A stretch of 64,000 nt of DNA from Pseudomonas asplenii (GTDB taxonomy: Bacteria > Pseudomonadota > Gammaproteobacteria > Pseudomonadales > Pseudomonadaceae), in assembly GCF_900105475.1 (NCBI RefSeq), contig NZ_LT629777.1, forward strand, positions 5,332,001 through 5,396,000, written 5' to 3'. Position 1 is the stretch's first letter. Each line of letters begins with the position of its first letter. Under the pieces are notes generated by a model that did no database searches, was not told the origin of the DNA, and worked only from the letters and a program-made list of their open reading frames with translations. Below, in pieces: positions 1-8,045 of the stretch. A program made the position numbers and the translations under genes.

Positions 1-2
1 TG

Positions 3-347
3 CCCTGGCCAGCCGCCCCTCGGGACATGGTGCTGCACGTGCACAGCGAACAGACCGACGACGGCAACCTGATTCGCCACCTGGAGGCAACCCCCGACTA
101 CCTGCCACCCGTGCCGGGCCTGATCCGTGTGCGCCAGTTGAACGGCCTGTGGAAGATGCTACCCAAGGGCGACGGCGTGACCGAAGTGACCTACCAGTTA
201 CAGGCCGAGCCGGCGGGCGACATTCCCTCCTGGCTGGCCAATCAGTTCGTGGTCGATGCGCCGATGGTCAGCCTCAAGACGTTGCGGGCGGTTGCCGAAC
301 GACAAGGTATACGCCCCGCCGCAACCAACGACGCAGCCCTGCCCTGA
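3..347 (+). CDS. START domain-containing protein, 3' part only
   Basis: The reading frame is open from the left window edge, so only the C-terminal ~114 residues are present. The visible part contains a PW(P)-x5-RDMVLH segment and a hydrophobic strand/helix pattern ending SWLANQFVVDAPMVSLKTLR, typical of the end of a START (StAR-related lipid transfer) domain as found in soluble pseudomonad proteins of about 200 residues. START domains bind lipids or other hydrophobic ligands; the ligand of this protein is unknown. Its TGA stop (345-347) directly abuts the stop codon of the convergent HNH nuclease gene with no bases between, which marks the left edge of the inserted-looking ATPase/HNH unit. 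The N-terminus, including any signal peptide, lies outside the window. Confidence 0.8.
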   Translation, partial: PWPAAPRDMVLHVHSEQTDDGNLIRHLEATPDYLPPVPGLIRVRQLNGLWKMLPKGDGVTEVTYQLQAEPAGDIPSWLANQFVVDAPMVSLKTLRAVAERQGIRPAATNDAALP

Positions 348-1382
348 TCAACTCGACAGGCGTACCTTGAAACCCTCGATCCACTCCCGGACCATGACCG
401 AATAAGGTGCTTCGGGACGGGCCATGGCTTTCATCTGCCCGAGGATCTGCTCCTGGAGAAAACGCAGGCGCTTGGCAATACGGCGGTCGCGCACCCGGTT
501 CTCCTGCTCGGGTTCTTCGGCAACCGGGTCAGTTGGGCCGGGGTCCAGGTCCTGGGCCATCAGGCCCATTTCCACCGACAACATTTCCAGAAACTCCAGC
601 TGGCGCAGCACACGGGTGCGTTCCTGCACCAACCCGAGCCGGTTCAAACCATAGACATGGATCGACACCGCGCCCCTGAGGCTCAGTTTGTCGGCCAGGG
701 CCTGCTCGATGACCTCTCGCAGTTCCGGCCGGACCCCTGCCACCCCTGTGGCCAGGTCCAGACCGCCACTATCATGGGACTTGGGCAGCACCAGACCGAT
801 CAGATTACCGCTGTCGACATGAAAGCTCAGGTGTTCCTGCGGCGAATCCCGGCACGGGTCCAATAACAGCGCCTGTTCCGCAGCAAAGTCGAGAACACCG
901 ACTGCCGCTCGCTCGCCCAGGATCGGAAAACTGTCCTGCTTGCCGGTCTGCATCACCCGAGAGCGACTGAGTTCACGCCCCTCGTTCACCAGGCTGACCA
1001 GACTTGTCGTGGGCGCGTGAGTCACCTGCCCGCTGCGCCGGTTGCAGTGAATGCAACTGGGCAGCAGATTGTCCCAGTCCATGGCGATCCACCAGTAACC
1101 AGGATGGTCCGGGTCCTCGTAAACGCTGCCCTTGGGCCGGTAGTGCTCGATATCCACCGGGGCAGTGCCGTAGTAGAAGCTCTCGCAGTAGGCGCATTTG
1201 CCGTGGAACAGCTCATTTAGCTGCTTCTTGACACTGTCGGACTTATAGACGGCAAAGGCTGGCAGCTTGCCTTTCGGCACGTCGAAATATGCCTGAAGTT
1301 TCTGCAACTCTTTTATTGCCGGTGAATTTTTTCCCGACATTGCATCCGGAACGATCACACTCTTGCGATTGACGGCGCGCAT
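348..1382 (-). CDS. HNH endonuclease, PtuB / TIGR02646-like
   Basis: A 344-residue protein with an intact HNH nuclease core: first zinc knuckle CAYCE (63-67), catalytic stretch DIEHYRPKG (77-85, His80), then W-x-NLLPSCIHCN (103-114), supplying the second Cys pair and the catalytic Asn. Further on lie LLLDPC (172-177) and a late LNR-x2-LVQERTR helix. This pattern is known from HNH proteins partnered with ATPases in Septu (PtuB) and in retron defence systems. It is the second gene after the ATPase; the ATPase stop and this ATG are separated by one codon in the same frame, so they are surely co-transcribed. No reverse transcriptase or retron RNA is visible nearby. DNA cleavage under ATPase control is inferred from the family. 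The target is unknown. Confidence 0.8.
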   Translation of the reverse strand: MRAVNRKSVIVPDAMSGKNSPAIKELQKLQAYFDVPKGKLPAFAVYKSDSVKKQLNELFHGKCAYCESFYYGTAPVDIEHYRPKGSVYEDPDHPGYWWIAMDWDNLLPSCIHCNRRSGQVTHAPTTSLVSLVNEGRELSRSRVMQTGKQDSFPILGERAAVGVLDFAAEQALLLDPCRDSPQEHLSFHVDSGNLIGLVLPKSHDSGGLDLATGVAGVRPELREVIEQALADKLSLRGAVSIHVYGLNRLGLVQERTRVLRQLEFLEMLSVEMGLMAQDLDPGPTDPVAEEPEQENRVRDRRIAKRLRFLQEQILGQMKAMARPEAPYSVMVREWIEGFKVRLSS

Positions 1383-1385
1383 GAT

Positions 1386-3704
1386 TCAGAGCCCGTTCAA
1401 AATATCAAGAATGTCCTGCTTGGCTTTGCTCCGAAGCTGCGAGAGTTTTTGTGCCGAGGCCAGCCGCCGATTATCCAGATACTCGACAACCGCTTCCTGT
1501 ACCAGCCTCTGAACCTCAGTGGAACCAACCGGCAAAGCGCTACTGATATCGCGTTCAAGTCCATGCAATGCATCCTGTTCTACCTGCGTCAACTGCTCAC
1601 CTTTTTCGCGTGCGCTCAACAGGTCTGCGAATTTTGCCAACTCTCGCTCGGTGTCAGGCTGGTCAGTGGAAGATAGATTGAAGAAATCCGAGGTCAGCAG
1701 TTGCTCAATGGTCAGCTGAGCGACATTCGGAAGCTCGGTGATTCGTTCCACATAGACAGGAAATTCACTCAACGCCTTGTCATGACAAGCAATGCGCTGC
1801 ATGACCACCACCTCCCCGTTATGCATGCCACGCAGACAAAGAGGATCATGTGTAGTGGCGATAAACGTCACCTTAGGCAAGGCTTTTCGCAAGGCCTGCA
1901 TAATCTGAATTTTCCAACGAGGGTGCAAATGTGCTTCGACTTCATCAATCAGCACCACAGCTGAGGCAGAAACCAGAGTCTGAAAATACATGTTGGATTT
2001 TTTATTCATCAACCCTTGCATGACATCACAGACCATCGCTAGGACGGCACGATAACCCGATGAAGCCAGACTCAATGGTGTCCTGCTTTTCCGCTCCGTT
2101 CCCGCCAGTTTACTCACTAGAAAGCACTGCTGAGAACTAAAGTCACGATCCATGACATCAAATTCCGCTTCAATCGACAGAATTTCACGCAGCGCCCGGA
2201 CGACCATACGAAACTCGGGCTCTCTCAGCCCGAGCAACCACTTTTCCGGATTAGACAAAAGCACATGAGACTTGAATAGATTAATGATTGGCCTGACTTC
2301 GGCCGGAGGGAGGTCCTCCTCCTGATACTGCCGAAACGCGCCATAGGCAAATACACTGGGAAGGTGTTCTTCACCGCCAACCCGATAACGTCCCGAGGAA
2401 ATACCCAGGGTCCGGGTCGTGGAGTCCCGAAAAGACAACTTGATAAACGCGGGCGCCACTTTTTCAGGAAGTGAGCTTCCCAACAACTCAGGATTCAAGG
2501 GCAGTGCATGGACATCGAGTGCCAACTCATTTCGGGCCGGCTTCGAACACATTGCGAGCGCAACAGCCTCGAGAATGGAGCTTTTCCCTGCGGCATTCTC
2601 TCCGAGAATGAGCAAGGCGGGGGTCGTCCCCTCCGACAACTGCTCAGGGTTTTCAGGCATGTCGATGACAAGCCTCTCTATACTCTTGAAATTTCTGAGT
2701 TCAATAGACTTCAGTTGCCGAGTGCGATATTCCGGCTCAGGAAAGCGTGGAAGATTTGTCACATCCACAACAGGCTTATACTTATTCAAAGCCGTAAACA
2801 ACCGATTATTCGTAGTCCCCGGCTGAAAAAATGTCTCCACAGCCAAATTCCCGAGTGAGCGTGCTTGTTCCTGTTCAAGATATATAAGCCAGACCCCGCC
2901 GAATTCGATGTGAGGAAAATTGAATATTAGATCAGACTGTTCATAAGCGCTTCCATGTGATTTTGTAGCTTCATATCGTTGCAAATACCCCTTGAGCACC
3001 TCCCCTCTTTTCCTCACCAAGTTAGGGCGATTGAGCTTGAAATTCTGTATGGTTTCCCTGGCATGTTCTGAAATCGGTATCAGCTCACCTGACAAGTCAA
3101 CCTCAAAGTGTTTTGAAAAATTTACTGAGGCGCAAGGATCCAGCAACAAGTTCTCTTCTTCTGGCGGATACGCTCCCCACTGCCCACTACCACTCTTGAC
3201 ATAAAAGTCAAATTCGTTGCGTGTTGGAACTGGCGCACGCCTACCGATCACAGGAAAATAATCACTTCGATCAGGAATGCAGTCAGTACAGATTGAATAT
3301 ATATTCTCCCACGCATTTTCCAGCCAGGAATAATACAAATGCGCGTTGTCGTGGTTTTCAACAGGGATTGCGTTTGAGGCGGGACGAAACCTATAAGGAA
3401 CCGTCGTACACACGCTTTCGCAAAAGGCACATTTTCTATTAAAAAGCTCCTCTAGGCACTTTTTCACCGAGAGATACGTCAGCTGAATTCCAAGCGCCGG
3501 CAGGTTGCTTTGTAATATTTTTTCATCAGTATTGGAGAAAAACTCCAAGAGCCGAGCCCTGGCTAACTTGGCTTCTTCGCTTTTCAGATGGAGCGGCGGG
3601 GGAACAGCACCTCGGTCAAATTTCTGCAAAACTCTTCTCCCTGAGAGTCGGAAAGCCAGATGGCATTCTCTCGAAAAATCAGAAACTTTAAACGGCGCGT
3701 CCAT
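1386..3704 (-). CDS. AAA/ABC-type ATPase with N-terminal degenerate HNH-like domain (PtuA-like)
   Basis: About 772 residues from the start chosen here. The N-terminal third is a second HNH-like module: CAFCE (92-96), CTDC (139-142), LLLDPC (186-191) and an LNRPNLVRKR helix, matching the downstream HNH protein block by block. However, the IEHYRPKG stretch is replaced by PYRFRPAS and the final Asn by Ile, so the catalytic His and Asn are missing while all four zinc-type Cys remain. The C-terminal part is an OLD/PtuA-like ATPase: IELRNFKSIE entry strand, Walker A GENAAGKS (368-375), signature-like LSLASSGYRA (about 544), Walker B VVLIDEVEAHLHPRW (about 583-597), and switch TTHDP. The open frame extends up to 3815, but that extension is a translated REP element, so ATG at 3704 is preferred although its ribosome site is weak. 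Base composition is visibly AT-richer than the neighbours. Confidence 0.72.
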   Translation of the reverse strand: MDAPFKVSDFSRECHLAFRLSGRRVLQKFDRGAVPPPLHLKSEEAKLARARLLEFFSNTDEKILQSNLPALGIQLTYLSVKKCLEELFNRKCAFCESVCTTVPYRFRPASNAIPVENHDNAHLYYSWLENAWENIYSICTDCIPDRSDYFPVIGRRAPVPTRNEFDFYVKSGSGQWGAYPPEEENLLLDPCASVNFSKHFEVDLSGELIPISEHARETIQNFKLNRPNLVRKRGEVLKGYLQRYEATKSHGSAYEQSDLIFNFPHIEFGGVWLIYLEQEQARSLGNLAVETFFQPGTTNNRLFTALNKYKPVVDVTNLPRFPEPEYRTRQLKSIELRNFKSIERLVIDMPENPEQLSEGTTPALLILGENAAGKSSILEAVALAMCSKPARNELALDVHALPLNPELLGSSLPEKVAPAFIKLSFRDSTTRTLGISSGRYRVGGEEHLPSVFAYGAFRQYQEEDLPPAEVRPIINLFKSHVLLSNPEKWLLGLREPEFRMVVRALREILSIEAEFDVMDRDFSSQQCFLVSKLAGTERKSRTPLSLASSGYRAVLAMVCDVMQGLMNKKSNMYFQTLVSASAVVLIDEVEAHLHPRWKIQIMQALRKALPKVTFIATTHDPLCLRGMHNGEVVVMQRIACHDKALSEFPVYVERITELPNVAQLTIEQLLTSDFFNLSSTDQPDTERELAKFADLLSAREKGEQLTQVEQDALHGLERDISSALPVGSTEVQRLVQEAVVEYLDNRRLASAQKLSQLRSKAKQDILDILNGL

Positions 3705-3746
3705 AAAAGTAGAGTTGTTTTTCGTCTCCAGTTCTTGCGCAACTGT

Positions 3747-3782
3747 CCGGGCGCTATCGCCAGCAAGCCAGCTCCCACAGAA
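3747..3782. repeat. REP element upstream of the ATPase gene
   Basis: On the minus strand this reads CTGTGGGAGCTGGCTTGC followed by TGGCGATAGCGCCCGG, the standard Pseudomonas REP core. It lies about 45-80 bp before the preferred ATPase start, inside the maximal open frame. The same core occurs at 8046-8072. Confidence 0.8.
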
Positions 3783-3831
3783 GGTAGCGGCGCCTACGAT
3801 ATCCAGGTCAGCCAAAAACTCTGCTTTGGCT

Positions 3832-3990
3832 TGTAACCTGGCTTTTTATCTTGCTTTTAATCTACCCGCCCCGCCCAGCAGGCTGAGTGGAGGTGCTGTT
3901 TCGAAAGTCGTCCGGCAGGGATGCCGGGCGAGCCGTGTAAGGCCATGGATGGCCCGTCACGGCGTGCTCTTCCAATTCCAACAGGCCGAC
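3832..3990. repeat. Pseudomonas intergenic repeat with GCCATGGATGGC core
   Basis: The stretch starts in a T-rich CTGGCTTTTTATCTTGCTTT run and continues to GGCAGGGATGCCGGGCGAGC, TAAGGCCATGGATGGCCC and GTCACGGCG. From memory this layout (T-rich lead, Cys/Gly-rich middle, near-palindromic GCCATGGATGGC) resembles a long repeated unit scattered between genes in fluorescens-group genomes. Together with the REP it fills most of the gap between the ATPase gene and the flavin reductase gene. I see no credible gene from 3816 to 4272; the short open frames there follow the repeat. Confidence 0.5.
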
Positions 3991-4211
3991 TTAGTCAACC
4001 AATCCCAACCGCCCCGCCTTCACCCGCGCCTGACGTATGGTATTCCAACAATTCCTCAAGACTGATCCGTACTGTACAAAGGCAATTGATCCGTCATTCA
4101 GCCCAGAAAAAATCCCAGTAAAATCAACTGAAATCCCCGTGATAAATGGTTATCCCCCCACTAATGAACGTTTGTCGGGGCACCCAAAAAGCTCTTGCAA
4201 AGGCCAATTTA

Positions 4212-4221
4212 CGGTATACCA
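4212..4221. promoter_or_regulatory. Candidate operator CGGTATACCA upstream of flavin reductase
   Basis: A GGTATACC palindrome 52 bp before the flavin reductase start. It matches, with one outer mismatch, the perfect palindrome TGGTATACCA at 6819-6828. The inner GTATAC fits the GT-N2-AC core of FadR-type GntR operators. No GntR gene is in the window. Confidence 0.45.
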
Positions 4222-4272
4222 TCAGACAATATTCAAACAAAAAATCCGCTCATTGCGGCCGAGGTTTCTCCA

Positions 4273-4758
4273 ATGATCGATGCAACCCTCTACAAGCAAG
4301 TCATGGGCTCGTTCCCGTCCGGCGTCACGGTGATCACCACTCTGGACGACGACGGCCAGATTGTCGGCCTGACCGCCAGTGCCTTCAGCTCGCTGTCGAT
4401 GGAACCGGCGCTGGTGCTGTTCTGCCCCAACTACAGCTCCGACTCGTACCCGCACCTGATCAAGAGCAAGCGCTTCGCCATCCATGTGCTGTCCGAGGCC
4501 CAGCAGAACGAAGCCTACGCCTTTGCCCGCAAGGGCAAGGATAAAGCGCAGGGCATCGAGTGGACGTTGAGCGAGTTGGGCAATCCGCTGTTGGCCAACG
4601 CCACGGCGATCATCGAATGCGAGCTGTGGCGCGAATATGAGGGCGGCGACCATGCGATCATGGTCGGCGCGGTGAAAAACCTGATCGTGCCGCAACGCGA
4701 GAACGGCCCGCTGGTGTACTGCCACGGCAAGATGGGCGCCCTGCCCGCCGTGGCCTGA
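4273..4758 (+). CDS. Flavin reductase-like protein (FMN-binding split barrel)
   Basis: A 161-residue protein beginning MIDATLYKQVMGSFPSG. It shows the family sequence GSFPSGVTVITT near the N-terminus, then GLTASAFSSLSMEPALVLFC (flavin-binding split barrel), HVLSEAQQ, and the closing GAVKNL and PLVYCHGKMGAL. Such proteins use NAD(P)H to supply reduced FMN or FAD to a separate monooxygenase. The likely client is the luciferase-like monooxygenase at 6962, because both promoters carry the same GGTATACC palindrome. The start has a GAGG ribosome site 8 bp upstream; a longer frame from 4195 is not supported. It is convergent with the chemoreceptor gene at 4803. Confidence 0.85.
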   Translation: MIDATLYKQVMGSFPSGVTVITTLDDDGQIVGLTASAFSSLSMEPALVLFCPNYSSDSYPHLIKSKRFAIHVLSEAQQNEAYAFARKGKDKAQGIEWTLSELGNPLLANATAIIECELWREYEGGDHAIMVGAVKNLIVPQRENGPLVYCHGKMGALPAVA

Positions 4759-4802
4759 TCGAACTGCGCGGCAGTGCCTGCTGGCACCGCCGCGTTCCCA
4801 CC

Positions 4803-6749
4803 TCAGGTCCGGAAGCGTCGGACCCACTGATTCAACGTCTCGGACAACTGCGTCAGGTTTCTCGCATCCTGGCTGCTGGAGTCCGCCAGGTCCGCCACCA
4901 ACTGCGCGTCGCCGTGAATCTGGCTGATATGCCGATTGATGTCCTCGGCCACCTGGTGCTGCTCTTCAGCCGCCGTGGCGATCTGGGTGTTCATGTCACG
5001 AATCACGTCCACCGACTCGCGGATCAGCTCGAAACTGGCCCGCGCCTCATTGATCGACACCACGGTTTCCTGGGAAACCTCCAGGCTGGCATGCATCTGC
5101 TTGCCCATCTGTTGGGTACGACGCGCCAGGGTGCCCAGCAGGTTGTCGATTTCGCCGGTGGAATCAGCCGTGCGCTTGGCCAGCGCGCGCACCTCGTCGG
5201 CGACGACGGCAAAACCCCGACCCTGCTCGCCAGCACGAGCCGCCTCGATCGCCGCGTTGAGCGCCAGCAGGTTGGTCTGTTCGGCAATCGAGCGGATGGT
5301 GCCGAGAATCGACTGGATGTCGTTGCTGTCCTGTGTCAGTTGCTGCATCGCCTCGGCAGACAGGCCAATCTCCTGACTCAACCGGTCGACCTTGTTCACT
5401 GCCGCCTCGATCTGCTTCTGCCCACTGTGGGCCTGGCGCTGACCATTGTCCGCCGCGTCGGCAGCCTGATTGCAGGAACGGGCGACCTCGTTGGAGGTGG
5501 CAACCATTTCGTGGAAGGCGGTCGAGACCATGTCCACCGCTTCGCGCTGACGCGCAGCGACCTCAGCCATCTCCTGGGAAACCTCGGTGGTGCTACCGGA
5601 GGTGGCGTGGATTTGCATCGCCGCCTCACCAATGCGCTGAATCAGACTGCGGATCGCCTCCAGGAACTGGTTGAACCAGCCTGCCAACTGCGCGGTTTCA
5701 TCCCGGCCACGCACCTCCAGCCGCGCGGTCAGGTCGCCGTCGCCCTGGGCGATGCCTTCCAGACCATTGGCCACCCCACGGATCGGCCGCACGATCAGGC
5801 CAGCAAAGAACGCCCCGGCAAAGGCGAACAGCACCGCACAGACCACGGCGATGGCGGCGATGATCCAGGTCAGACGCGTCACCCCGGCCATCACCTCGCT
5901 CTCGCGTACCAGACCGACGAAACGCCAGCCCAGGGCCTCGGAAGGCTGGATATTGGCGATGTAGCGCTCGCCGGCCAACTCGACGTCAACCAGGCCCTTG
6001 CCGGCCTTGGCAAGGACCGCATACCCATCCCCCAACTGGCCGAGGTTCTTGAAGTTGTGCTCGGGCTGCTGCGGGTCCACCAGCACCTTGTCGCTGCCCT
6101 CGGTGAGCATCAGATAACCGCTGTCGCCCAGTCGGATCTGCTTGACCAGATCGGTCAATTGCTTGAGCGAAACGTCGATATTCACCACACCGCCCTGCTC
6201 GCCCAGACGATTGGCGAAACTGCGCACGGTGCTGACCAACACGACGTTATCTGCGGCCCAGTAATAAGCGCCGGTACGCAGAGTCTTGCCGGGCTGAGCC
6301 ATGGCCGTCTGATACCAGGGGCGGCTGCGCGGATCATAGCTGTTGAGTTTGGGATCGCCCGGCCAGAATACATAACCGCCCTCACGGGTACCGAGCGACA
6401 GATAGCTGTAGGCCGAATGACTCTTGGCCAGTTGAGCGAACAGGCGAAACACCTGTTGGTCCTGCTCGCCCATGGCGACCTTCGGTGCATCGGCATCCAG
6501 GTAGCGCTTGAGCTGCCCATCGATATTCTGCAGTTGGGGCGCGTCGGCGAGGAACTCGACGTTCTGGGTGATACCCTCGAAGAACAGTTGCATGGCGTTC
6601 TCGACCTGGCGGATTTCCCGACCACTGCTGTCCAGAAACGCCTCGCGGGCCTCGTGGCGCAGGTTGAGAATGACCAGAAGCGCCACGAGGATGACCGGCA
6701 AAGCGGCAATTGCAGCGAATGCCAGGGTCAGTTTTTGTTTTATGTTCAT
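4803..6749 (-). CDS. Methyl-accepting chemotaxis protein with dCache sensor
   Basis: A 648-residue chemoreceptor in the usual order: short cytoplasmic start and membrane helix (about 8-29), periplasmic double-Cache domain (about 35-275; RSRPWYQTAM and a second-lobe GYLMLTEG are visible), second membrane helix (about 281-303), HAMP linker, then the cytoplasmic signalling domain with hairpin tip [20 protein letters not shown] and [18 protein letters not shown]. It will sense a small extracellular ligand and signal to CheA/CheW. It is flanked by the flavin reductase gene (convergent) and the LLM monooxygenase gene (divergent, sharing the promoter region with the TGGTATACCA operator), so the ligand may be the substrate of that monooxygenase pair. 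That link is inferred. Confidence 0.92.
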   Translation of the reverse strand: MNIKQKLTLAFAAIAALPVILVALLVILNLRHEAREAFLDSSGREIRQVENAMQLFFEGITQNVEFLADAPQLQNIDGQLKRYLDADAPKVAMGEQDQQVFRLFAQLAKSHSAYSYLSLGTREGGYVFWPGDPKLNSYDPRSRPWYQTAMAQPGKTLRTGAYYWAADNVVLVSTVRSFANRLGEQGGVVNIDVSLKQLTDLVKQIRLGDSGYLMLTEGSDKVLVDPQQPEHNFKNLGQLGDGYAVLAKAGKGLVDVELAGERYIANIQPSEALGWRFVGLVRESEVMAGVTRLTWIIAAIAVVCAVLFAFAGAFFAGLIVRPIRGVANGLEGIAQGDGDLTARLEVRGRDETAQLAGWFNQFLEAIRSLIQRIGEAAMQIHATSGSTTEVSQEMAEVAARQREAVDMVSTAFHEMVATSNEVARSCNQAADAADNGQRQAHSGQKQIEAAVNKVDRLSQEIGLSAEAMQQLTQDSNDIQSILGTIRSIAEQTNLLALNAAIEAARAGEQGRGFAVVADEVRALAKRTADSTGEIDNLLGTLARRTQQMGKQMHASLEVSQETVVSINEARASFELIRESVDVIRDMNTQIATAAEEQHQVAEDINRHISQIHGDAQLVADLADSSSQDARNLTQLSETLNQWVRRFRT

Positions 6750-6818
6750 CTAGCTCGCCTTCCTTGTCAGGTGAGTGCGATTTGTCGGAGAGAAAGGTTT
6801 TGCAGATATTCCATATTA

Positions 6819-6828
6819 TGGTATACCA
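6819..6828. promoter_or_regulatory. Perfect palindrome TGGTATACCA between chemoreceptor and LLM genes
   Basis: A ten-base perfect palindrome 70 bp before the minus-strand chemoreceptor start and 134 bp before the plus-strand LLM monooxygenase start. It is nearly identical to the site at 4212-4221 and fits a FadR-type GntR operator core (GT-N2-AC). Confidence 0.5.
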
Positions 6829-6961
6829 ACACCTTATCGAGAGGCCAATAATGTTCTGCCCGACTCGAACCGCTTGAACATATCCGGCAGCGCGCCGCGC
6901 TCCATCCAGGCAACAGGCCCGCAGTCGACAGGCCGACTACAAGAGACCCGAGGTAAGCGTC

Positions 6962-8005
6962 ATGAAATTTTCCCTGTTCGTACACATGGAACGCTGGGAC
7001 GAAAGCGTCAGCCACCGCCAGTTGTTCGAAGACCTCACCGAACTGACGCTGATGGCCGAAACCGGTGGTTTCAGCACCGTCTGGATCGGCGAACATCACG
7101 CGATGGAATACACCATCTCGCCAAGCCCGATGCCATTGCTGGCCTACCTCGCGGCTCGTACCACCACCATTCACCTGGGCGCCGGGACCATCATTGCGCC
7201 GTTCTGGCACCCGCTGCGGGTCGCAGGTGAGTGCGCCCTGCTCGACGTGATCAGCAACGGCCGGATGGAAGTCGGTCTGGCACGCGGTGCCTATCAGGTC
7301 GAGTTCGACCGTATGGCGGGCGGCATGCCGGCCTCTTCCGGCGGCCTGGCGCTGCGGGAGATGGTTCCGGTGGTCCGCGCCCTGTGGCAGGGCGACTATG
7401 CCCACGATGGCGAGATCTGGAAGTTCCCCACCTCCACCAGCGTGCCCAAGCCGATACAGAAACCCAACCCGCCGATGTGGATCGCCGCCCGCGACCCGGA
7501 CTCGCACAACTTCGCCGTGGCCAACGGCTGCAACGTCATGGTCACGCCGCTGATGAAGGGTGATGAAGAAGTCCTGGACCTGAAGAACAAATTCCAGGCC
7601 GCCCTGGATAACAACCCCGGCGTGCCACGTCCGCAACTGATGGTGTTGCGCCACACCCACGTGCACGCCGAGGACGATCCCGAAGGCTGGAAAGTCGGCG
7701 CCACGGCGATCAACCGGTTCTACCGGACCTTCGACGCCTGGTTCGGCAACAAGCAGGTGCCGCAGAACGGTTTCCTGGCACCGAGCCCGGAAGAGAAGTT
7801 CGCCGAACGTCCGGAGTTCGAACTGGAGAATATCCGCAAGAACACCATGATCGGCACACCGCAAGAGATCATCAGCCGCATCCGCTACTACCAGGAACTG
7901 GGCGTCGACGAGTTCAGTTTCTGGTGTGACAACGGCCTGTCGCACGCCGAGAAAAAGAAGTCGCTGGAACTGTTCATCCAGCACGTCGTACCAGCGTTCC
8001 GCTGA
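6962..8005 (+). CDS. LLM-class (luciferase-like) flavin-dependent monooxygenase
   Basis: A 347-residue protein of the bacterial luciferase-like family. The TIM-barrel start (MKFSLFVHMER), TVWIGEHHAMEY and the LGAGTIIAPFWHPLRVAGE strand/loop are typical, followed by ISNGRMEVGLARGAY and the closing EIISRIRYYQELGVDEFSFW. These enzymes take FMNH2 from a partner reductase and oxygenate an aldehyde, ketone, amine or sulfonate. GAGG sits 8 bp before the ATG. The probable reductase partner is encoded at 4273, beyond a chemoreceptor gene; the shared palindrome supports joint regulation. The substrate cannot be told from the sequence. It is followed by an inverted REP pair. Confidence 0.88.
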   Translation: MKFSLFVHMERWDESVSHRQLFEDLTELTLMAETGGFSTVWIGEHHAMEYTISPSPMPLLAYLAARTTTIHLGAGTIIAPFWHPLRVAGECALLDVISNGRMEVGLARGAYQVEFDRMAGGMPASSGGLALREMVPVVRALWQGDYAHDGEIWKFPTSTSVPKPIQKPNPPMWIAARDPDSHNFAVANGCNVMVTPLMKGDEEVLDLKNKFQAALDNNPGVPRPQLMVLRHTHVHAEDDPEGWKVGATAINRFYRTFDAWFGNKQVPQNGFLAPSPEEKFAERPEFELENIRKNTMIGTPQEIISRIRYYQELGVDEFSFWCDNGLSHAEKKKSLELFIQHVVPAFR

Positions 8006-8045
8006 GCACGCTGTAAACCCCACCTGCCGGCCTCCACAACCCCCT

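What the first reader, a model, noticed from the sequence alone, without database searches (positions are those of the whole stretch)
348..3704. Defence-like pair: an ATPase fused to a catalytically dead HNH domain plus a separate live HNH nuclease
Both proteins carry the same HNH scaffold (CA-F/Y-CE knuckle, second Cys pair, LLLDPC, LNR-x2-LV helix). The free copy keeps His80 in IEHYRPKG and the final Asn. The ATPase-fused copy keeps all four Cys but reads PYRFRPAS and CTDCI, so it has lost the catalytic residues. This suggests a pseudo-nuclease used as a docking or sensing module that pairs with the active nuclease, a variation on Septu PtuAB that I do not recognise as described. AT-richer composition and insertion directly against a START-domain gene fit a mobile defence module.
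Basis: partly seen in the sequence, partly recalled or inferred. Interest (0 to 1): 0.75.

Follow-up and report, generated by a model that had tools for sequence, protein, structure and literature searches.

The report
Dead nuclease copy as phage sensor
A bacterial gene pair that matches the Septu anti-phage family carries the same nuclease twice, once intact and once fused to its partner ATPase with catalytic residues lost; related bacteria appear to exchange the fused dead copy, which is predicted to act as the sensing part of the system.

The parts
348..1382 (-). ptuB: intact HNH nuclease, 344 aa (H80 at 1143-1145, N105 at 1068-1070, N114 at 1041-1043; Cys 63/66/110/113)
   Evidence: PADLOC PDLC00329 PtuB 452.8 bits over its whole length; C,C,H,N,C,C,N in 80 of 81 aligned PtuBs (80 loci and the window), the other cut by a contig end; AlphaFold pLDDT 91.4; best PDB match 9nnb_J E 3.2e-5
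1386..3629 (-). ptuA: ABC-type ATPase with N-terminal pseudo-PtuB, 747 aa from TTG 3629 (reader: ATG 3704, 772 aa); 3 nt upstream of ptuB
   Evidence: PADLOC PDLC00291 PtuA 931.9 bits, profile positions 2-772 of 773; start codon inferred from homologue starts and an AGGGAG site 7 nt upstream
2856..3629 (-). pseudo-PtuB domain (residues 26-283 of the 772-aa frame)
3390..3392 (-). Arg105 in YRFRP at the place of the catalytic His (H80 of PtuB)
   Evidence: Arg in 67 of 80 readable rows (79 loci and the window)
3420..3431 (-). first Cys pair C92/C95 of the pseudo-PtuB (CAFCE)
   Evidence: Cys kept in 207 of 207 fused domains
3279..3290 (-). second Cys pair C139/C142 (CTDC), followed by Ile143 where PtuB has Asn114
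2727..2855 (-). linker between pseudo-PtuB and ATPase, the most variable stretch (mean pairwise identity 14% in 79 sequences)
   Evidence: low pLDDT at 287-319
1389..2726 (-). ABC-type ATPase part (residues 327-772)
   Evidence: PF13304 2.6e-14, PF13175 3.9e-13; PDB sequence relatives are PtuA chains
2577..2606 (-). Walker A, LGENAAGKSS
   Evidence: sequence; L-G-E-N..GK invariant in the alignments
1920..1958 (-). Walker B, VVLIDEVEAHLHP
   Evidence: sequence; D-E and H.HP invariant in the alignments
1..347 (+). 3' part of a START-domain gene (starts outside the window) that flanks the insertion site
   Evidence: PF01852
4273..4758 (+). flavin reductase gene, the other flank of the site
   Evidence: PF01613; synteny in relatives with and without ptuBA

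Best explanation
This is a two-gene Septu-type locus in which the ATPase PtuA carries at its N-terminus a complete second copy of the nuclease PtuB that has lost the catalytic His and final Asn, and this pseudo-nuclease likely works as an exchangeable sensing or regulatory module of the ATPase, which would switch on the intact free PtuB. Shown by computation: the domain is a PtuB paralogue by profile and predicted fold; the free copy is intact wherever readable while the fused copy is repeatedly degenerate; the fused domain is constrained, yet in Pseudomonas differs strongly between loci with similar PtuB. Inferred: the 5' half of ptuA is exchanged by recombination; the pseudo-PtuB contacts a phage-derived or infection-derived signal (or an altered nucleic acid) through its fold and its Arg-containing former active site; this changes the ATP-dependent state of the PtuA oligomer; and PtuB, probably bound to the ATPase part, is released or activated to cut tRNA or DNA and stop the infection.
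Against: No function was tested. The mosaic could reflect a recombination hotspot only; of six pairs looked at, only L007/L008 has similar sequence on both sides of the divergent stretch, and L007/L010 shows no drop. The variable half includes the ATPase N-lobe, not the pseudo-PtuB alone. The HNH core of the fused domain (49.7% mean identity) is better conserved than its surroundings, which would also fit a docking surface, and PtuB outside its HNH part is itself only 40.8%. Short segments give noisier distances, which lowers r by itself. In three of eleven roughly independent pairs the fused domain has no silent excess over PtuB (L040/L052, L028/L073, L069/L077). 34 of 207 fused domains keep His and final N/H, so in part of the family it may still cut. 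Foldseek TM-scores are modest (0.34-0.38 by query length). No covariation analysis and no complex model were made.
Confidence: 0.5

Rival explanations
1. One reading: the pseudo-PtuB pairs with the free PtuB (pseudo-heterodimer), holding it inactive or positioning it on the ATPase.
For: The domain is a PtuB paralogue with a PtuB gene next to it in 80 of 80 loci; its HNH core is its best conserved part; solved complexes have fewer PtuB than PtuA (4:2 and 2-1 in PDB titles), so spare PtuB-like sites could be filled in cis.
Against: Loci with nearly the same PtuB carry very different fused domains (L007/L008: PtuB 95%, fused segments 61-76%; L057/L033: PtuB 91%, fused 35-58%), and fused-domain distances track PtuB distances less well than ATPase distances do.
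Confidence: 0.2
2. The pseudo-PtuB is a substrate-holding module: it keeps the HNH fold, with Arg in place of His, and presents tRNA or DNA to the active PtuB.
For: The zinc Cys are fully kept, with Arg at the His column in 103 of 207; known PtuAB act on tRNA-Tyr (retron-Eco7, PMC11555353; Septu EcB88, PMC13096335) or nicked DNA (ATCC 25922, as reported in PMC11555353); passages read.
Against: A constant host substrate would not predict strong divergence or swapping of the domain; Arg is not the rule outside this clade (6 of 111 in the set).
Confidence: 0.2
3. The fused domain is still a nuclease, using the WxN Asn and other residues, so the system has two cutting subunits.
For: 34 of 207 fused domains keep His and the final N/H, including L144 with an intact free PtuB; the WxN Asn is invariant.
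Against: In the window's own type 102 of 115 readable proteins have neither residue; H75 or N91 substitutions of PtuB abolished defence in Septu EcB88 (PMC13096335, passages read).
Confidence: 0.06
4. The fused copy is a decaying relic without function.
For: Repeated changes at the catalytic positions and fast divergence.
Against: Zn Cys and WxN 207 of 207; dN/dS 0.09-0.35 where computable; the domain is present in all 79 of 80 loci whose contig reaches it, though these loci were found with the long protein.
Confidence: 0.04

Closest known systems
Septu type I (PtuA ATPase + PtuB HNH), PADLOC PtuA1/PtuB1
   Same: Both genes match PADLOC PtuA/PtuB models over nearly their whole length (PDLC00291 931.9 bits, PDLC00329 452.8 bits); Walker A/B and PtuB H/N/N present; order ptuA-ptuB
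   Different: PtuA chains in the PDB are 456-552 aa and match the window protein only in the ATPase part. Here PtuA has an extra N-terminal pseudo-PtuB. PADLOC holds three long models that span it (PDLC00288, 00291, 00292) under the same name, described only as 'AAA ATPase domain'.
Retron type I-A (Ec78/Eco7, Ec83), also called Septu type II
   Same: The same ATPase and HNH effector pair; chains of these complexes are the closest structures to the fused domain
   Different: No reverse transcriptase nearby: the RVT_1 matches of the genome are over 1 Mb away. A Priestia plasmid relative does have an RT gene beside it (L205).
ptuXYZ operons (PMC11980606, passages read)
   Same: PtuA-like ATPase in a multigene defence-like operon
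   Different: Uses a DUF262 protein and a PIN-YoeB RNase; no PtuB and no fused HNH is mentioned in the passages read

Membership tests
Septu type I | PtuA: ABC-type ATPase of the PtuA family with Walker A and B | tested here: met
   PDLC00291 931.9 bits; LGENAAGKSS and DEVEAHLHP present
Septu type I | PtuB: HNH nuclease of the PtuB family with catalytic His and Asn | tested here: met
   PDLC00329 452.8 bits; H80, N105, N114. NCBIfam TIGR02646 and NF041761 score below their cut-offs (40.4 against 52.15; 35.5 against 150), and Pfam HNH is below cut-off too (14.2 against 21.4)
Septu type I | ptuA and ptuB adjacent in one operon | tested here: met
   3 nt apart in the window; PtuB-like ORF next to PtuA on the same strand in 80 of 80 genome loci
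Septu type I | Anti-phage activity | not testable with these tools
   No experiment on this pair or a long-PtuA relative seen in the papers searched
Septu type I | PtuA-PtuB complex of defined stoichiometry | not testable with these tools
   Only single chains can be modelled here
Retron type I-A (Septu type II) | Reverse transcriptase gene and msr-msd next to ptuAB | tested here: not met
   Ten flanking genes examined, none an RT; RVT_1 matches lie at 1.68, 2.44 and 4.15 Mb, the locus at 5.33 Mb. msr-msd RNA was not searched for
Pseudoenzyme (dead paralogue of an active enzyme) | Fold retained with catalytic residues lost | tested here: met
Pseudoenzyme (dead paralogue of an active enzyme) | No catalytic activity | not testable with these tools
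   Needs biochemistry
Defence-island member | Other defence genes nearby | tested here: inconclusive
   Window neighbours: 1 of 9 matches a PADLOC model, and that one (PDLC01078, oxidoreductase) is a luciferase-like monooxygenase. Some plasmid relatives lie near genes with defence-type labels, others do not; enrichment was not measured against a control

The most novel reading that the evidence does not exclude
Septu repeatedly turned a fused copy of its own effector nuclease into an immune receptor: the dead PtuB on PtuA is the recognition domain, traded between strains as an allelic cassette that resets what the defence detects, much as plant NLRs carry integrated decoy domains or type I restriction enzymes swap specificity subunits; some branches add a phospholipase as a third, second-strike gene.
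Probability: 0.28. Interest if true: 0.82.

Novelty: new variant of a known kind. Interest (0 to 1): 0.62.

Why it matters
How Septu senses infection when no retron msDNA is present is, as far as I know (recalled, not searched), an open question. A dead, constrained, fast-diverging paralogue of the effector built into the ATPase gives a concrete candidate for the sensor and a natural experiment: relatives with nearly identical PtuB and ATPase C-lobe but different fused domains (L007/L008, L006/L008). It is also a clean case of repeated pseudo-enzyme formation, with at least 21 changes at one catalytic column while the four Cys never change in 207 domains.

Tried and rejected
Viral collections: the first scan with P0001 found nothing. 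The alignment scan found 10 loci, matching part of the ATPase; none of them showed a PtuB match, and three showed no match at all, in the ORF search. INPHARED phages gave 6 partial ATPase matches covering 12-23% of the query. A phage origin is therefore not supported. A search of 369 class-level genomes with the intact-type L144 protein found nothing at E<=1e-70; the tool warns that such an empty answer shows nothing. Whether intact fused copies regularly coexist with an intact PtuB therefore rests on one locus (L144). Promoter and terminator scans found fewer sites than shuffles. A retron reading was rejected because no RT is nearby. I considered an effector-decoy reading (dead PtuB as bait for phage anti-Septu proteins). 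It is not excluded, but the fused domain does not track PtuB closely, as a mimic should, so I fold it into the broader sensor model. Literature: ten searches listed no paper on a fused dead HNH in PtuA as far as titles, abstract starts and the passages I opened show; most listed papers were not opened. Only the CC0/CC BY/CC BY-SA part of PMC is held, and three papers I asked for (PMC12318543, PMC12240667, doi 10.1093/nar/gkaa726) are not held, so absence from print is not shown.
Full report
What is there. PtuB ends exactly against the stop codon of a convergent START-domain gene. Homologues of PtuA shown start with MQxF(D/E)R. In the window that motif begins at a TTG (3629) with AGGGAG seven nt upstream, so the true start is probably there and PtuA is 747 aa. 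Residue numbers below follow the 772-aa frame. GC falls to 0.49-0.53 over 1-4 kb.

Family. PADLOC gives PtuB PDLC00329 452.8 bits and PtuA PDLC00291 931.9 bits, both over nearly the whole profile. The long-PtuA models PDLC00288, 00291 and 00292 already contain the N-terminal region, and all three also hit PtuB with their N-terminal parts. NCBIfam PtuA and PtuB models built for retron Ec78 score below cut-off. PDB sequence matches are PtuA chains, in the ATPase part only; PtuB itself has no PDB match by sequence. So the pair is Septu by current models, of a long-PtuA kind.

Asymmetric decay. The genome-contig scan kept the best 80 of 402 confirmed loci. All 80 have a PtuB-like ORF next to the long PtuA. 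In the alignment of 80 loci plus the window, PtuB is C,C,H,N,C,C,N in 80 of 81; the other (L022) is cut by a contig end. The fused domain is readable in 80 of 81 (L081 is cut). It keeps the four Cys and the WxN Asn in all 80, has Arg at the His column in 67, His in 5, Gln 4, Leu 3, Tyr 1, and never keeps both His and the final N/H. In 23 further pairs (9 genome loci; 14 plasmid loci; not dereplicated) the free PtuB is intact in 23 and the fused copy in 1 (L144). A 15th plasmid locus, L207, has a short PtuA without the domain.

Across 207 dereplicated fused domains (from 329 sources; 15 without a usable domain and 107 redundant ones were dropped) the Cys and WxN are invariant, His is kept in 72, the final N/H in 59, both in 34. 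At least 21 and 25 changes of state are needed on a quick tree built without those two columns; such counts cannot tell gain from loss. Against a simple story: many L144-like relatives are intact (51 of 111 readable proteins keep both), and three metagenomic relatives of the window's type (P0103, P0107, P0119) do as well. A tree of 60 fused, free and short-Septu PtuB domains puts 23 of 27 fused domains in one clade (98/92) and all 25 free partners together (82/76), with parallel subgroups. Four fused domains (L147-L150) fall elsewhere, five short-Septu rows are long branches, and the root is uncertain, so one or a few fusion events are both possible.

Constraint and exchange. Over 79 sequences (window plus 78 loci; L022 and L081 left out), mean pairwise identity is 29%, 50% and 34% for the three fused-domain segments, 14% for the linker, 40% and 58% for the ATPase lobes, 43% for the C-terminus and 46.5% for PtuB (65% in its HNH part, 41% in the rest). 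For 27 of the 32 pairs with PtuB identity of at least 80%, dN/dS of the fused domain lies between 0.09 and 0.35 (not computable in five saturated pairs), so it is under purifying selection. Mean silent difference is higher there (0.49) than in PtuB (0.36), mostly from Pseudomonas pairs. Among eleven pairs picked as roughly independent, three (L040/L052, L028/L073, L069/L077) show no silent excess.

Sliding identity over six Pseudomonas loci shows why. L007 against L008 is 93-97% upstream of ptuA, 53-78% over the fused domain and ATPase N-lobe, then 88-94% through the C-lobe and most of ptuB. L008 and L011 are 97-100% in that stretch but 82-94% in ptuB. Three other pairs show the same drop but have unrelated upstream sequence, and L007/L010 shows no drop. 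I read this mosaic as recombination replacing the 5' half of ptuA (inference). Fused-domain distances correlate with PtuB distances at r 0.61-0.68, below the ATPase N-lobe, C-lobe and C-terminus (0.84, 0.74, 0.82); short segments lower r by themselves. On balance this speaks against a tight, specific docking interface with PtuB.

Site and mobility. Several Pseudomonas loci share the flanks: START gene on one side, flavin reductase or its neighbours on the other. L033 is 89.5% identical to the window over 4036-8029 and 76% over 1-2081, while 2082-4035, which holds the first half of ptuA, has no DNA match. L193 has the same flanks with a permease-like ORF (my reading) and no ptuBA; L192 has START followed by FolD with only short ORFs between. 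L194 has a P-type-ATPase-like ORF (my reading) between START and ptuB. In 149 Pseudomonas genomes, 28 of the 30 START loci returned were of the window's type (63% identity or more, own genome included), and 6 of these had PtuB directly next to START within the fetched stretch (own genome included). In 398 Pseudomonas genomes 29, own included, have a long-PtuA match of at least 138 bits (next best 63.5). In 398 phylum-wide genomes 5, own included, pass 1e-60. Among fetched plasmid relatives, L154, L155 and L197 are on plasmids typed conjugative, L153 and L198 mobilizable, and one is in Bacillota (L205, Priestia).

Mechanism. PtuAB of retron-Eco7 depletes tRNA-Tyr, while that of retron-Eco4 likely does not act on tRNA; Septu EcB88 cleaves tRNA-Tyr, and its Walker and H75/N91 mutants lose defence (abstract and passages of PMC11555353 and PMC13096335). 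The E. coli ATCC 25922 PtuAB is reported to act on nicked DNA (stated in PMC11555353). In Ec83, msDNA holds PtuAB inactive until infection (a review sentence, PMC12948488). A stand-alone Septu has no msDNA, so another part must sense. A constrained, dead, fast-diverging paralogue fused to the ATPase is a natural candidate. I commit to sensing or regulation by the pseudo-PtuB with PtuB as the cutter; every step after the domain's identity is inferred.

Third gene. In 10 of 74 loci with at least 900 nt downstream (6 of 80 were too short), an ORF with patatin-type motifs starts within -36 to +45 nt of the ptuB end, and in one (L076) a Tle1-like ORF. Pfam confirms Patatin for the three of the ten that I tested and Tle1-like for L076. 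PADLOC has no model for these four. Of 12 plasmid records with a relative of the L040 patatin, 10 have it directly next to a window-type PtuB, some of them near-duplicate records; the two exceptions are the least similar (40.0% and 36.5% identity). The window itself has no such gene.

Noticed in passing
L013, L040, L043, L052, L061, L063, L066, L068, L071, L074; plasmid loci L199-L202: A patatin-like phospholipase gene follows ptuB directly (10 of 74 loci; Pfam tested on three). Its plasmid relatives sit next to this PtuB in 10 of 12 records: possibly a three-gene Septu variant.
   Followed up: partly
L076:11261-12406: A Tle1-like phospholipase gene (PF09994) starts 10 nt after ptuB; a DUF2235 gene lies on the opposite strand next to the pair in L198.
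   Followed up: no
L194:4877-8290: A P-type-ATPase-like ORF (my reading) sits between START and ptuB, and a START-3'-end-like peptide reappears beside ptuB, as if the site had taken a second insert.
   Followed up: no
L161:3407-3892 (about 8.6-8.1 kb left of window 1): A second flavin reductase gene closely resembling the one at window 4273-4758 lies on the other side of the locus.
   Followed up: no
L205:7943-8956: On a Priestia megaterium plasmid a gene annotated as retron St85 family reverse transcriptase lies beside a long PtuA (Arg at the His column) and PtuB pair.
   Followed up: no
G491 (L148 and C32:18321-19532): One Pseudomonas genome carries two different long-PtuA matches on two contigs.
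   Followed up: no
P0206: A long-PtuA fragment named Medicago truncatula is probably bacterial contamination of a plant record.
   Followed up: no
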